Source of the DNA: Vampirovibrio chlorellavorus
GTDB lineage: Bacteria; Cyanobacteriota; Vampirovibrionia; Vampirovibrionales; Vampirovibrionaceae
Reading direction: 5' to 3'
Assembly (NCBI RefSeq): GCF_003149375.1
Contig: NZ_QFWH01000011.1
Span: 1 to 54,771, forward strand
Length of the DNA: 54,771 bases
The position numbers and the translations under genes are program-made. The notes under the pieces were generated by a model. It worked only from the letters and a program-made list of their open reading frames with translations. It searched no databases and was not told the origin of the DNA. Shown one piece after another: positions 41,259 through 54,406 of this stretch; the stretch's first letter is position 1; each line of letters opens with the position of its first letter.

Positions 41259-41651
41259 TTGGGTGTTAATGTTATAACGTGACTTCTCCCGGATTACAAG
41301 AGGGGAATTAAAATTTCTGTCATCATTTCATCCGATTCCGAGTGAACCCCGCCTCTCAAGGCCGCCATCCCGACATGGGAAGCGGGCCTGCCAACCCCTT
41401 CAGGCATGGGCTGGCCTTCCCTTTCGCCAATGGATCAGCCGATCCGGGCCTGTGGCGTTGAGGATTATCATGATCTAGGAATATTTTAACAATCCTGTTT
41501 GCATTGTTTTTTGAATTATGGTAGTTTATTTGCTCATCAGGATATGGGATGAGTTTTTGGTAGGGATACCCCGTCACCAGGGGATCTTTGGGTTTCATAA
41601 ATACAAAAGATACAAAATAAGCGATAGGCACATTGAAGGGGGTTTATCCGT
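41259..41651. other. Intergenic region before the subtilase gene
   Basis: About 390 bases. The stretch 41460-41540 is AT-rich and is the likely place for the promoter of the large protease gene; I see no confident consensus pair. No gene supported. Confidence 0.4.
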
Positions 41652-44600
41652 ATGCAATCCGTGCAATTTTTTGGCGGGAATTTTTTCAATCGTTTGAACA
41701 ACAAGGCCAAAGACAAGGCCACTGCTCCCCCGCCAGCGTTGGAGTACCTGCAACCGTTTTCGACGCCAGAGGATCAGTTTATACCGCTTTCCCGAGACAG
41801 CGAGGAGCCCTCGGAAAGTTCCAGCCTGCGGCCCGAGTCGCCGCCTGTCACCAGCACAGGGCCCAGTCGCTCTGTATCGACGGTCAGCCACAACCGGACC
41901 CCCCGCGCGGGCAAAGCGCTGGAGCGGCAATTCATCCAGACCCTGCAAGACAGTGATAACCACGAAGAGAAGGCCGCCATCGCTGAAATGCTGGGCAGAG
42001 CCGGTAGTATCGAGGCCCTGCCTGTACTGGTGGACTTGTTGAGCGACGACGGGGAGGATATCGAGGTACGCACCGCCGCTGCGGAGGCCATTAGCCTCAT
42101 CGGCAGCGGCATCAACCCGAATAGCTATACCACGACCGAACTGAGCGGCGTCTTGCTGGATCAATATCAGCGACGTAAAGCCGAAATGACCGAACGGCTG
42201 GCCCGACCCACCCTCAGCCTTCCCTTTGCCGATCGCCAACCGGAGGCCAAAGCCCGGAAAGATCGGATGACGGAGCTGAAAACCTTGTTGTCTGGCATTG
42301 GTAAACTGAATACCAAACTGGGCCGCAAAGCCTTGCAGCAGGAGTATCAAACCACCATCGGCATGAGCCTGATGGATGACGGGGAGGTGCGGCAGATGAT
42401 CCGGGCCACGGAGATGGCTGAGGAGGCATTCCAAAAGGAGCTGGAGAAGAAGTACCAACGTCCGGCTGCCGAATTACTGGCGGAAATCCCCAGAACCGAG
42501 CTGGAGGCCATGAAAAAGCAGGTGCTGCTGAAAACCCCGCAGGGCAAAACCATTGATTTGCTGGAAGCCTTGGCCCAGATTGCCATTTTGAAAGAAAAAC
42601 AGGCCCAGTTCGGTACAGAGTTGTTATCCGGCCTGATGGACGCCCTGGCCCTGCAGAATGATAAGGCGGTCACGGCGGCCTTGAAGCTGGGTCTCATTAA
42701 CAATCACCCGGCCATTAAGGCCAAAGCCCTGAAGCTGCTGCGGCATCGCAACGGGCTCAACTACAATAGCGACATCTACCCGAATCTCTACGCCCGAGAC
42801 GCGGAAATTCGCAAAGCGGCCCTCAAAAGTCTGGTGCACGCCAAGGAACCGGCAGCCCAGCAAAAAACCATGGAACTGCTCAAGCCCAAAGCCTTTCTGG
42901 AGCTGATGGGCGGCCTCAACCCAAATGGGCTGAAAAGCTACGTCAAATTTCTGGAGCAAGTGGCCGAAAACGGGGATGAGTTCATCGAGGCCCTCAGCAA
43001 CCGGGCCCTGCACAGCGATTATGATCTGGAAACACGGCAGGTGGCCTTGCTGGTGCTGGGCATGATGACCCAGGGGCCAGCGGCGGAAAGCGTTTCCCTG
43101 CAAACCCGGGCGCAAGCCCTGTCGGCCATCAAGGTGCTGGCGGTCAAACCGCCGGCTCGATCCACGGAAGATCTGGAAGCCCTGCGCTTGACGGCCACCC
43201 AGCTTTGGGTGCTGCAACAGGACCCTCAGGCCGTCGCTTCCGCCATTATGCTGGCCGACAGCAAGCATATCCGTATGAGCGGGGCCCAGCAGGCCGGTTT
43301 ACTGAACGCGGTCTTTTCGGTGCTGCAAGCGGATCGCCAAAAAAGCGAAAGCGAACGACAGCAGGAGACCCAACACCAGCTGCTGGACATTCTGCGTAGC
43401 GGGAAACATCCCAGCATTGGCCCGGATGAAGAACAGGCCTTGCGCAAAGCGCTTCCGGAGCCCGGCATCTACCAGCGACTCAACCCCCAAAATAGCGCGG
43501 ACTTTTTGGCCTTGAATGCGGGGGGAGTCCCTAATAACAGTCTCCAGAAACTAGTGGCCAGCCAAAATCAGCTGCTGCGCCCCTTTCTGACCCGTCTGGC
43601 CGAAACCGAGAAATCGCCCATCGCCCAGATGCTGGCCATCCGAATTCTGGGGGTGCTGCAAGACGCGGACAGTCTGGGCTATTTAAAAGAGCGGGCCCGA
43701 GATCCGCTCAAGGGCAAAATCGATTGGGACGCCGATGTGAGTTACCGGGGAAATCCGGCCAGCGCCGCCGCCAACGTGCGGTTAAACACACTGGCCGCCC
43801 TGGGGGATATCGGGCGTTCGGAGGCCCTGGATGTGATGCTGGATGCTTTGGATGATGCCGTGTTGAAAAACTTCGCCGCCGAACCCTTGGGCCAAATTGC
43901 CGAACACGCCAATCAGCACGCTTCCGAGGAGCAGATTCGGCAGGCCCGGACCAAGCTGGTACGCCTGATGGAAACCCCCAATACCACCCGCGCCATGCGG
44001 GCCGTTCGCATCAAGGCGGCCAGCGCCCTGTATCAGTTTAAAGACGGGGTCAAGGACATCAAGGCCTTTGTGGAGAGAACCCCCGATCCCAACTTCCGCA
44101 GACAGGCCCTGTCCGCTTTTTTAAGCCACAATCACGGGCTGGAAAAGGATCACGAGGATTATCCCCTGATTCGGTCCATGATTCACCCCGGCTTGGGGAT
44201 TGAGCAACTGCACGAGCAGGGGGTGACCGGTAAGGGCGTTCAAATGGCCATTGTGGACGGGGGTTATGTGAACCCCGAGAATGAGGAGGCCTTTCAGGAT
44301 CGGGTTAAACTGCCAGCCAACGCTGAAGATCCCGAACATGCCCACCCCACCATGGTGATGACCACGGCGGCGGCCAACGGCAAGCTGAAAGGGGTGGCCC
44401 CGGATGCCGTGGTGTTCTCGGACAAGTGGCCGGACTTTCAGGCCAAAGACACCATGGCCGTGTACAAAAAAATGATTGAAGGCAAACTGCGGGGAGAAAA
44501 CGACATTCGCGTCATCAACAACTCCTGGGGCTTCAGCAATCCCAATGCCATCCTGCACAGAGAAGTTCGCGACATCCTGCGTGACTACAAAAAAGTGGTG

Positions 44601-45593
44601 GATCTGGCGGAGAAAGCGGGCATCCAGATGGTCTTCGCCGCCGGGAACGAGGGCGAGGGCATGGCCTTTCCCAAGGTGGGCACCCTCAGCGTGTTCGGGC
44701 TGGATTTGGACAAGTTGACCCGGGAGGACGCCAAAACGGTGGACTACATTCTGGACAAGGTCATTCTGGCCGGGGCTTTAAACACCCAGGGCGATGATCA
44801 GAACCGGGCCCTGCACCGCATTGCCGACTTCAGCAGTCGGGGGGATAGTCTGAATGCCCGACTGGAACCCACGGTGCTGGCCCCCGGCGCCGATATGATG
44901 GTGTATGGTTGGGATCCCTACAAAGGAAATCCCATGCAGCTGGTGAACGGTACCTCTTTCGCCAGTCCCTATGTGAGTGGCCTGCTAAGCCTGATGTTGC
45001 AGAAAAATCCCAACCTCAGCCCGGCGGAGTTGCGGGAGATTCTGAAGCAGACCGCCGTGGCGCTTCCCGATGTTCCTCGCTCCGAACAGGGGCATGGGGT
45101 GGTGGATCCGCAAGCGGCGGTAAAACTGGCTGCCAGTTATGGGCAGTCGAGTCGCAAGCGGAAACTGGACAGTCAAGACAGTGATAGTAGCAGCGGAAGT
45201 TCCGGTCAGTCAGGCGTTAAAAAGCCAAACCAAATCAAAAAGGATGGCCCCAAGGCCGCGCTGGCGTCATTGCCCGTGTGGGACTCTGGCTTCTCGCAGG
45301 GTGCTGGGGGAACGGTGAAAAAAAAATGGCAAACGGCCTCTTCCAAGCCTTCCCAGTCAACGCCTGACCTGCGGGAGGTCAGCGCTCTGACACTCAAGCC
45401 ACCCTCTGACGGCTGGCTATCCGCCGGGAAAAGTTTTTTAACGGGTCAACCTTTGTTGAAGAGCGCCAAGGGGCCGACCGCTGCCCCGGTACTGCCTTCC
45501 AAAGCCAGCAAACCGGCCTTCAGATCCAAAGCGTCGGCACCCCGACCACTCATGAACCCGCCCAGACCGCCAGCGCTGGTAATGACCCGGTGA
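41652..45593 (+). CDS. Giant HEAT-like repeat protein with C-terminal subtilisin (S8) protease domain
   Basis: 1313 residues. After a 60-residue low-complexity start come helical HEAT/ARM-like repeats over about residues 90-830 (LPVLVDLLSDDGEDIEVRTA, NVRLNTLAALGDIGRSEALD, VRIKAASALYQFKDGVKDIK). The S8 protease domain follows (about 850-1160): Asp869 in AIVDGGY, His898 in HAHPTMV (the HGTHVAG position), oxyanion Asn999 in AAGNEGEG and Ser1102 in NGTSFASP. The 150-residue tail is Ser/Pro/Lys-rich. There is no Sec signal, so it is either cytoplasmic or exported by another route. GAAGGGGG precedes ATG 41652. The last 148 bases overlap the convergent repair gene. Role, perhaps targeted or self-processing proteolysis with the repeats as substrate or partner dock, is inference. 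Confidence 0.88.
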   Translation: MQSVQFFGGNFFNRLNNKAKDKATAPPPALEYLQPFSTPEDQFIPLSRDSEEPSESSSLRPESPPVTSTGPSRSVSTVSHNRTPRAGKALERQFIQTLQDSDNHEEKAAIAEMLGRAGSIEALPVLVDLLSDDGEDIEVRTAAAEAISLIGSGINPNSYTTTELSGVLLDQYQRRKAEMTERLARPTLSLPFADRQPEAKARKDRMTELKTLLSGIGKLNTKLGRKALQQEYQTTIGMSLMDDGEVRQMIRATEMAEEAFQKELEKKYQRPAAELLAEIPRTELEAMKKQVLLKTPQGKTIDLLEALAQIAILKEKQAQFGTELLSGLMDALALQNDKAVTAALKLGLINNHPAIKAKALKLLRHRNGLNYNSDIYPNLYARDAEIRKAALKSLVHAKEPAAQQKTMELLKPKAFLELMGGLNPNGLKSYVKFLEQVAENGDEFIEALSNRALHSDYDLETRQVALLVLGMMTQGPAAESVSLQTRAQALSAIKVLAVKPPARSTEDLEALRLTATQLWVLQQDPQAVASAIMLADSKHIRMSGAQQAGLLNAVFSVLQADRQKSESERQQETQHQLLDILRSGKHPSIGPDEEQALRKALPEPGIYQRLNPQNSADFLALNAGGVPNNSLQKLVASQNQLLRPFLTRLAETEKSPIAQMLAIRILGVLQDADSLGYLKERARDPLKGKIDWDADVSYRGNPASAAANVRLNTLAALGDIGRSEALDVMLDALDDAVLKNFAAEPLGQIAEHANQHASEEQIRQARTKLVRLMETPNTTRAMRAVRIKAASALYQFKDGVKDIKAFVERTPDPNFRRQALSAFLSHNHGLEKDHEDYPLIRSMIHPGLGIEQLHEQGVTGKGVQMAIVDGGYVNPENEEAFQDRVKLPANAEDPEHAHPTMVMTTAAANGKLKGVAPDAVVFSDKWPDFQAKDTMAVYKKMIEGKLRGENDIRVINNSWGFSNPNAILHREVRDILRDYKKVVDLAEKAGIQMVFAAGNEGEGMAFPKVGTLSVFGLDLDKLTREDAKTVDYILDKVILAGALNTQGDDQNRALHRIADFSSRGDSLNARLEPTVLAPGADMMVYGWDPYKGNPMQLVNGTSFASPYVSGLLSLMLQKNPNLSPAELREILKQTAVALPDVPRSEQGHGVVDPQAAVKLAASYGQSSRKRKLDSQDSDSSSGSSGQSGVKKPNQIKKDGPKAALASLPVWDSGFSQGAGGTVKKKWQTASSKPSQSTPDLREVSALTLKPPSDGWLSAGKSFLTGQPLLKSAKGPTAAPVLPSKASKPAFRSKASAPRPLMNPPRPPALVMTR

Positions 45594-45994
45594 CAGGGCA
45601 GGATAATGGGCAATGGATTTCGTCCCAAGGCGCCGCCCACTGCACGGGTGGCCCTGGGCCTGTCCACTCGGTGCGCCATCCACTGATAGGAACGGGTTTC
45701 TCCATAGGGAATGCCTGCCAGCGCATGGCAAACTGCTTGTTGAAAGGGCGTTCCCGTCAGTTGTAGCGGCAGCGCGTCAAAGGTAACGATTTCTCCCACG
45801 AAGTAGCGCTGTAAAAGGGCTAGGGCGTGACGCTCCAGATCCGTCTCCGGGTCTTCGCGAAACCCGGCGGGGGCTGTTAAGGTGCTTCCCTGCCAGTCCA
45901 GACTGATGAGGGCCGCTTCCGTACTCGCCAGAGACCAGCCGCCCAAGGGGGAGGAAAACCACAGGCGTCGCTTGGTTTGTAGGGGCCTATTCAT
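45446..45994 (-). CDS. Methylated-DNA-[protein]-cysteine S-methyltransferase (Ogt/MGMT)
   Basis: Suicide repair protein that takes alkyl groups from O6-alkylguanine. 182 residues: TPFQQAVCHALAGIPYGETR, the helix-turn-helix with RAVGGALGRNP, and the acceptor-cysteine motif ILPCHRVITSAGGLGGFMSG. The family usually ends soon after the KxxLLxxEG block (here KAGLLALEG); this protein carries about 16 further residues. Those and the preceding 30 codons lie within the overlap with the protease gene on the other strand. Confidence 0.95.
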   Translation of the reverse strand: MNRPLQTKRRLWFSSPLGGWSLASTEAALISLDWQGSTLTAPAGFREDPETDLERHALALLQRYFVGEIVTFDALPLQLTGTPFQQAVCHALAGIPYGETRSYQWMAHRVDRPRATRAVGGALGRNPLPIILPCHRVITSAGGLGGFMSGRGADALDLKAGLLALEGSTGAAVGPLALFNKG

Positions 45995-53284: not shown

Positions 53285-53428
53285 TATTGTTTTGGCCGCA
53301 TATTTGACCAGCGTTTCCACACAAATTCCCTTGATATCGGCAATCTGTTCCTGAGCCAGGCCCAGACCCGCCAGCATCTCGATTTCACTAATATCCTGTC
53401 CAGATAACCGTTTAGGAGGCCGAGGCAT
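53261..53428 (-). CDS. 55-residue HTH-like protein after the methyltransferase
   Basis: From ATG 53428 the peptide reads MPRPPKRLSGQDISEIEMLA, then GLGLAQEQIADIKGICVETL and KYAAKTISILWSKR. The middle is a sigma/Hin-type helix-turn-helix (GLAQEQIADIKGICVETLVK) of the kind seen at the N-terminus of small phage terminase subunits and phage regulators. Its start overlaps the methyltransferase stop by 17 bases; its end overlaps the frameshifted gene on the other strand by 24. It may be a truncated terminase small subunit. Confidence 0.6.
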   Translation of the reverse strand: MPRPPKRLSGQDISEIEMLAGLGLAQEQIADIKGICVETLVKYAAKTISILWSKR

Positions 53429-54406
53429 GATCCGCTCCTTTCAACTGATTCATAACAGACTGGGCCACTGATTGCATGAGCAAGGGGGGCACGGCGTTTC
53501 CCAAGCGTCCCCATTGCTGTTCAAACGTGCCAAACAAGACAAAATCATCGGGAAATGAGCACACCCGTTTCAATTCCCCGATGCTCAAAAAACGATCCTC
53601 TTCCGGGTGCAACAAGCCGCATTGTCCGGCCCGGATGGTTTTACAGACCGTGGGGCTGGGCTTGTGCCAACTGAGCCGCTGCAAGGAAAAATCATTTCCT
53701 TTTTGCTGATAGCGCGCATGCAAATCCGCCCCAGACTCACCGGGCTTCAAAGCTTTGGCAATGGCTAGCGCCCTCCCCACAGGAGCTTGAGTCAGGCCCG
53801 GATTGCTTAAGTCCTTTACAGCCTCACTGAAGCCGATTGGATGCGTCTGAGGATATGGGTGCAGTGGCGTTATTCCTAAATCATTACGCAGACCCACAAC
53901 AATCACCCACTTGCGCGCCTGAGGCACCCCGTAATATGCGGCATTTAACACTCTGGCTTGCACCCGGTAACCAGCGTCTTGCAGCACCTGAACCATCTCT
54001 TGAAAAATAGGCCGCATTTTACCGCTCACCAGCCCCGGCACATTCTCCATAACAAAGGCTTTGGGCTGAAAGGCCTTTAAAAAACGCACATACTCTTCAA
54101 ACAAGCGGTTCCGGGGATCCTGAACCTGACGCTTACCCGCCAAGGAGAATCCCTGACAGGGCGGTGAACCGTCCAGAATATCCAGTTCCCCTTGTTGCAG
54201 GCCCAATTCAGCCATGATTTCCTGAGGATTCAATCTTGTAATATCCCCATCCAGCAGCAAGGTACCGGGATGATTTGCTTTATAAGTGGCACCGCATGCG
54301 GATCCCGCTCTACTGCTGCGAGTACCTTACAACCGGCCAGTTTATATCCCAGGCTGGATCCGCCACACCCGGCAAACAGGCTTAAAACTTGGGGCGACCT
54401 AGACAT
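53412..54406 (-). pseudogene. C5-cytosine DNA methyltransferase, interrupted by one frameshift
   Basis: From ATG 54406 (GGAGGGA upstream) the sequence gives motif I, VLSLFAGCGGSSLGYKLAG, and VERDPHAV, then loses frame; from 54290 onward another frame gives ATYKANHPGTLLLDGDI, motif IV GSPPCQGFS (catalytic Cys), VMENVPGL, QARKWVIVVG and RLGNAVPPLL. Restoring one base in GTGCC (54288-54292; e.g. GTGGCC) rejoins them. All ten-motif landmarks survive, so loss is recent or is a consensus error. It overlaps the ParB-like gene by eight bases and the HTH gene by 17. No restriction enzyme is visible; an orphan phage methyltransferase is likely. Confidence 0.85.

What the first reader, a model, noticed from the sequence alone, without database searches (positions are those of the whole stretch)
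41652..45593. 1313-residue HEAT-like repeat protein fused to an intact subtilisin domain
About 740 residues of helical repeats precede an S8 domain with a complete D869/H898/S1102 triad and N999, but no signal peptide. Such a fusion is unusual: the repeats may recognise a target or hold the protease inactive, as in NLR-like or CHAT/TPR-protease systems. It could be an immune, self-killing or predatory effector.
Basis: partly seen in the sequence, partly recalled or inferred. Interest (0 to 1): 0.7.

Follow-up and report, generated by a model that had tools for sequence, protein, structure and literature searches.

The report
HEAT-repeat subtilisin of Vampirovibrio relatives
A large bacterial protein from a relative of the alga-preying Vampirovibrio joins a long helical scaffold to an apparently working protein-cutting enzyme; the combination is uncommon and its target is unknown, and it does not look like an immune system.

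Summary
Window 41652-45593 (+) encodes 1313 residues: polar tail, about 750 residues of HEAT/ARM alpha-solenoid, a subtilisin domain with D869, H898, N999 and S1102, then a basic polar tail; no N-terminal hydrophobic segment. Triad and Asn are conserved in 4 of 4 homologues spanning the site, and the S8 part is under strong purifying selection (dN/dS 0.03). The host is a close relative of Vampirovibrio chlorellavorus. All 5 genomes of the genus carry the gene (one copy cut by a contig end); its neighbours are housekeeping genes. A divergent HEAT-S8 form occurs sparsely in the class (9 further genomes among 382). The S8 tree joins both forms weakly (88/88), and their profiles align through the HEAT-S8 junction. 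Several divergent members have a signal-like N-terminus that the Vampirovibrio form lacks. An NLR-, CHAT- or defence-type system is not supported. A predation effector is possible but unproven: VirB4 and VirD4 are missing from 3 of 5 genus genomes, including this one, and the conserved last residues overlap an antisense repair gene. Best reading: a solenoid-guided, substrate-selective subtilase, ancestrally exported, whose place of action in Vampirovibrio is open.

The parts
41652..45593 (+). HEAT-S8 protein, 1313 aa, stop codon included
41635..41642 (+). ribosome-binding-like GAAGGGGG before the ATG
   Evidence: read directly
41652..41909 (+). N-terminal polar tail (residues 1-86), S/P-rich, no hydrophobic stretch by eye; dN/dS 0.22
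41910..44156 (+). HEAT/ARM alpha-solenoid (about residues 87-835), with long helices near residues 192-268
   Evidence: Pfam; model; solenoid matches
44184..45146 (+). subtilisin (S8) domain, about residues 845-1165
44256..44258 (+). catalytic D869 (AIVDGGY)
44343..44345 (+). catalytic H898 (HPTM, not the usual HGT, the latter recalled)
44646..44648 (+). oxyanion N999 (AAGNEG)
44955..44957 (+). catalytic S1102 (NGTSFAS)
45147..45590 (+). C-terminal polar tail (residues 1166-1313); the stretch 1166-1290 has dN/dS 0.26
45153..45164 (+). RKRK run (1168-1171), nuclear-localisation-like; kept in 3 of 4 homologues
   Evidence: base rate
45446..45994 (-). convergent MGMT/ogt gene overlapping the last 148 nt of the HEAT-S8 ORF; its PCHR active-site codons lie at 45587-45598

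Best explanation
It is a solenoid-guided subtilase: the HEAT solenoid binds particular protein substrates or a partner and presents them to a catalytically complete S8 domain that lacks a classical propeptide. Shown: architecture, intact catalytic residues, subtilisin fold, purifying selection, presence through the genus, and a sparse divergent form in the class. Inferred: that it is active, that the solenoid is what gives selectivity, and that both forms descend from one fusion. The divergent form looks exported (a signal-like hydrophobic stretch near the N-terminus by eye). The Vampirovibrio form has lost or replaced that stretch, so it acts either in the cytoplasm or after a leaderless export step; these two are about equally likely on present evidence.
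For: Pfam and fold evidence for both halves. Triad and Asn conserved in 4 of 4. Selection strongest on the S8 domain: dN/dS 0.029, against about 0.08 in HEAT and 0.22-0.26 in the tails. Present in 5 of 5 genus genomes; the G002 copy ends at a contig edge after 564 residues and the G003 copy starts at one. Profile comparison of the two forms: probability 99.4, E 1.5e-21, running through the last repeats, the junction and the S8 domain. All 12 HEAT-S8 domains fall on one side of a branch against 20 other S8 domains, support 88/88. The catalytic His is in HPT in 3 of the 4 Vampirovibrio rows (HPS in L032) and in 5 of the 6 divergent rows (HSD in L078). No known propeptide or inhibitor domain.
Against: No activity data. 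Branch support 88/88 is below the tool's own threshold, so two independent fusions are not excluded. The N-terminal repeats of the two forms did not align with each other. The hydrophobicity score does not separate the two forms cleanly: the window protein reaches 1.22 inside a repeat helix, divergent members 0.76-1.79. Zero cysteines in 1313 residues (10.4 expected) hints at export, but 23 of 179 sampled proteins of this genome also have none.
Confidence: 0.55

Rival explanations
1. Leaderless effector protease delivered into the algal prey, where the solenoid picks a host target and the RKRK run directs it to the nucleus.
For: The nearest named relatives are Vampirovibrio, including the alga predator V. 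chlorellavorus. A 2015 genome paper proposed T4SS delivery of hydrolytic enzymes to Chlorella (PMC4451040, passages). No N-terminal hydrophobic stretch, polar tails, RKRK after the protease in 3 of 4 homologues.
Against: VirB4 and VirD4 are found in only 2 of 5 genus genomes, not in this one, while the protein is in all 5. K/R runs of four or more occur in 13 of 300 sampled proteins. The conserved last 23 residues, which could have been read as a secretion signal, lie over the conserved core of the antisense ogt gene. No secretion genes among the neighbours scanned. MAGs often lose plasmids, so absence of T4SS is not firm.
Confidence: 0.2
2. Cytoplasmic regulatory or quality-control protease of the bacterium itself, held inactive or guided by its own solenoid, like intracellular subtilisins in location.
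For: No signal peptide by eye; one copy in a conserved neighbourhood; strong purifying selection; the other two S8 proteins of this genome also lack an evident signal peptide.
Against: Divergent relatives look exported. Absent from most of the class, so not a general housekeeping function.
Confidence: 0.3
3. Immune or self-killing effector (NLR-like or CHAT/TPR-protease-like).
For: Repeat-sensor plus protease layout; a PADLOC generic subtilase profile matches, E 3.8e-15.
Against: No NTPase or CHAT domain; no defence genes among the 20 window proteins scanned, except that one is a C-5 cytosine DNA methylase at 53415-54260; conserved at the same place in the genus instead of patchy and mobile; no paired neighbour gene; no relative in viral contigs.
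Confidence: 0.04

Closest known systems
Peptidase family S8 (subtilases), Pfam PF00082
   Same: Catalytic D/H/N/S in order, subtilisin fold at Z about 30, above Pfam cut-off
   Different: About 750 residues of HEAT solenoid in place of a propeptide; HPT instead of HGT at the histidine; no evident signal peptide
T7SS mycosin (TIGR03921), the best NCBIfam match
   Same: S8 domain similarity, 75 bits
   Different: Far under the 278.75-bit cut-off; mycosins carry a signal peptide and membrane anchor (recalled)
PatA/PatG cyanobactin proteases (TIGR03895)
   Same: S8 proteases of the same phylum without classical secretion (recalled)
   Different: 22 bits against a cut-off of 421; no cyanobactin genes among the neighbours scanned
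TPR-CHAT (Craspase) and separase
   Same: Helical-repeat scaffold joined to a protease (recalled)
   Different: Caspase-like cysteine protease there (recalled), serine subtilase here
Divergent HEAT-S8 proteins of the class (L075, L076, L078, L101, L102, L103, L104, L105)
   Same: Long helical N-terminal part, S8 at the C-terminus, alignable junction
   Different: 21-25% identity in the aligned S8 part, signal-like N-terminus where it could be read, no basic tail of this kind

Membership tests
Peptidase S8 (subtilase) | Profile match above curated cut-off | tested here: met
   115.4 bits against 21.8
Peptidase S8 (subtilase) | Asp, His, Ser triad and oxyanion Asn in subtilisin order | tested here: met
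   D869, H898, N999, S1102, 4 of 4 homologues
Peptidase S8 (subtilase) | Subtilisin fold | tested here: met
   Model pTM 0.86, Z about 30, rmsd 2.3-4.5 over about 250-282 residues
Peptidase S8 (subtilase) | Proteolytic activity | not testable with these tools
   needs an assay
HEAT/ARM repeat proteins | HEAT profile above cut-off and alpha-solenoid | tested here: met
   HEAT_2 65.5 bits against 27.7; solenoid matches up to Z 17.4
T7SS mycosin | Curated NCBIfam cut-off | tested here: not met
   75 against 278.75 bits
TPR-CHAT / NLR-like immune protease | CHAT or STAND/NTPase domain | tested here: not met
   none among Pfam and NCBIfam matches up to E 1
Anti-phage defence system | Defence genes next to it | tested here: inconclusive
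   20 window proteins scanned with Pfam show no clear defence gene (one is a DNA cytosine methylase 8 kb away); neighbours were not scanned with PADLOC
Type IV secretion effector | T4SS in the same genome | tested here: not met
   VirB4 and VirD4 profiles: 0 matches in G000; 2 of 5 in the genus; genome 95% complete, plasmids may be missing
Type IV secretion effector | C-terminal translocation signal | tested here: inconclusive
   conserved C-end coincides with antisense ogt

The most novel reading that the evidence does not exclude
An ancestrally exported HEAT-subtilase of the non-photosynthetic cyanobacterial class was turned, in Vampirovibrio, into a leaderless protease that enters algal prey and uses its importin-like solenoid and basic tail to reach and cut a chosen nuclear or cytoplasmic protein.
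Probability: 0.12. Interest if true: 0.75.

Novelty: new variant of a known kind. Interest (0 to 1): 0.42.

Why it matters
How Vampirovibrio empties algal cells is not known at the level of single enzymes, as far as the passages I read go. A genus-wide, intact protease with its own targeting scaffold is a concrete candidate to test. If it is instead cytoplasmic, it is an uncommon domain arrangement for a regulated subtilase. Either way the divergent relatives give a natural comparison between a signal-bearing and a signal-less form.

Tried and rejected
N-terminal motif. The first residues (SVQFFGG) resemble a few other N-termini of the genus and family, so I tested whether such a motif marks a class of proteins. 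It does not: [VI]xFxG in the first 40 residues is found in 6 of 287 sampled proteins of this genome against 6-8 in the three control windows; 4 of 123 in G009 against 0-3; 0 of 47 in G020 against 0-2 (an earlier version is).

C-terminal signal. The last 23 residues are nearly invariant between the window and L005 (dN/dS 0.034), but they lie over the ogt core on the other strand. L006, which lacks ogt at this place, also lacks the motif. A search for similar C-ends gave no convincing group: 3 of 348 proteins.

Contractile injection. The one phage-sheath match in this genome sits among Mu-like prophage-looking genes (by eye and gene order), not a delivery machine.

Genus-only origin. From the first searches I thought the fusion was confined to the genus. 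The divergent profile then found it elsewhere, so that was dropped.

A very long apparent reading frame around one divergent copy in G054 is a run of unread bases, not a gene.

Viral contigs: 78 stretches matched a pattern, none was a relative. Plasmid and phage records: S8 domain only, 0 records covering 80% of the query.

Papers: searches listed no description of a HEAT-S8 fusion (search listings; held library only). Of the papers, only passages of PMC4451040 were read.

Full report
What is there. The ORF at 41652-45593 (+) is real and as described. Its order is: polar tail, residues 1-86; HEAT/ARM repeats, about 87-835; subtilisin domain, about 845-1165; polar basic tail to 1313. D869, H898, N999 and S1102 are invariant in the four homologues that cover them, the window's own protein included. 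The first AlphaFold2 model, from five related sequences, shows helical repeats over most of the first 760 modelled residues but fails on the S8 part. A second model of the S8 part with 25 sequences is good, pLDDT 80.8 and pTM 0.86, and matches subtilisins at Z about 30 (Foldseek E to 1.7e-17). The repeat part matches HEAT, armadillo and importin-type solenoids; that is a shared fold, not a function.

Whose it is. The window is contig C11 of a 2.79-Mb genome. The nearest named records are Vampirovibrio sp. clean456 (94% over residues 1-564, contig end) and V. chlorellavorus NCIMB 11383 (86%, whole length), then a Vampirovibrio MAG at 44%. All 5 genomes of the genus hold it; G002 is cut by a contig end after 564 residues and G003 begins at one.

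Neighbours. Upstream and divergent is an aminotransferase; downstream and convergent is an MGMT/ogt gene, then an unnamed secreted-looking protein. Ten proteins scanned and ten are mostly metabolic or transport proteins, several without a Pfam match; none is clearly a defence or secretion-machine gene (one is a DNA cytosine methylase 8 kb away). The unnamed protein follows the HEAT-S8 gene, with ogt between them in three of the four, in all four loci inspected. The gene stands alone on its strand.

Overlap with ogt. The ORF overlaps ogt by 148 nt here and 151 nt in L005 and L032. Between the window and L005 the last 23 residues have dN/dS 0.034, against 0.26 for the 125 before them. They lie opposite ogt residues 135-158, at its PCHR active-site motif. 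In L006 ogt is not there and the C-end differs. I therefore do not read the conserved C-end as a secretion signal.

How wide the family is. The Vampirovibrio profile found copies with the repeats only in the genus: 5 of 18 genomes of the order have a match over the repeats; G005 and G008 match in S8 only. In the phylum sample it found 1 of 386 genomes at E 1e-22, which is this genome. Some S8 frames in the class were long, however. Of ten stretches fetched, three, L075, L076 and L078, have a long helical-looking N-terminal part before the S8 domain. HEAT_2 stays under its Pfam cut-off of 27.7 bits in all three: 25.6 in L078, 16.1 in L075, no match in L076. So their repeats are called HEAT-like by comparison, not by Pfam. 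Profile comparison of the two forms gives 99.4% over the last repeats, junction and S8. A search of 382 class genomes with the divergent profile gave 13 at E 1e-12: four Vampirovibrio genomes in S8 only, and nine others: G009 (same family), G010 (same order, contig-cut, no S8 in the match), and G022, G037, G050, G054, G424, G426, G428. G037 keeps D, H and S by eye in divergent surroundings.

One origin or two. In a tree of 32 S8 domains, the 12 HEAT-S8 domains lie on one side of a branch against 20 others, 88/88, not starred. L078 and L104 are long branches. One fusion is favoured, not shown.

Export. By eye the divergent copies with a readable N-terminus (L075, L076, L101, L102, L105, L106; L078 weakly) have a hydrophobic stretch within about the first 90 residues, often ending in a signal-peptidase-like site. 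Hydrophobicity maxima are 1.58, 1.27, 1.43, 1.79, 1.43 and 0.76 for L076, L075, G009, G424, G010 and L078; the Vampirovibrio copies reach 0.82-1.32, but for the window, L005 and L004 that is in a repeat helix from about residue 108 on. The measure alone does not separate the forms. No signal-peptide predictor was available.

Effector question. The 2015 genome paper on V. chlorellavorus proposed that a conjugative T4SS delivers hydrolytic enzymes to Chlorella (PMC4451040; passages read). VirB4 and VirD4 profiles match in 2 of 5 genus genomes and not in this one. The protein is in all 5, so it is not tied to that system, though plasmids may be missing from the assemblies. An RKRK run follows the protease in 3 of 4 homologues; runs of four or more K/R occur in 13 of 300 sampled proteins of this genome, so it is a weak sign.

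Immune question. No NTPase, CHAT or other sensor domain was found. PADLOC reports only a generic subtilase profile. The gene is at a fixed place in the genus and alone. I reject the immune reading at low residual probability.

Verdict. A catalytically complete subtilase with its own solenoid, a variant of a known kind, sparse in its class and constant in Vampirovibrio. The most likely working is solenoid-guided selective proteolysis; the place of action is open. No description of such a fusion turned up in the paper searches.

Noticed in passing
window 45446-45593: The HEAT-S8 ORF runs 148 nt into the convergent ogt gene and ends opposite its PCHR active-site codons; the overlap is 151 nt in two relatives. 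A case of long convergent coding overlap.
   Followed up: yes
L030:6558-8156 (-), G000:C2: A PLD-like protein without evident signal peptide ends in SPKRKRLEVSA, a nuclear-localisation-like end, close to a second S8 protein of the same genome.
   Followed up: partly
L030:4676-5980 (-) and L029:3368-4888 (+): The genome's two other S8 proteins also lack an evident signal peptide; the first seems to lack the usual catalytic Asp context.
   Followed up: partly
G000, G001, G003 against G002, G004: VirB4 and VirD4 are absent from three of five Vampirovibrio genome assemblies, which bears on the published idea that a T4SS is the invasion device.
   Followed up: partly
L058 (G000:C7:140001-160000): Mu-like prophage-looking gene block with a phage sheath gene.
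   Followed up: partly
window 41652 and L057:9975-10730, L040:16825-17988, L101:4656-8588: Several N-termini contain [VI]xFxG or the similar IRFG in a polar context (SVQFFGG, SVQFGGG, QIRFGAS, KISFQGA); not enriched over control windows.
   Followed up: yes
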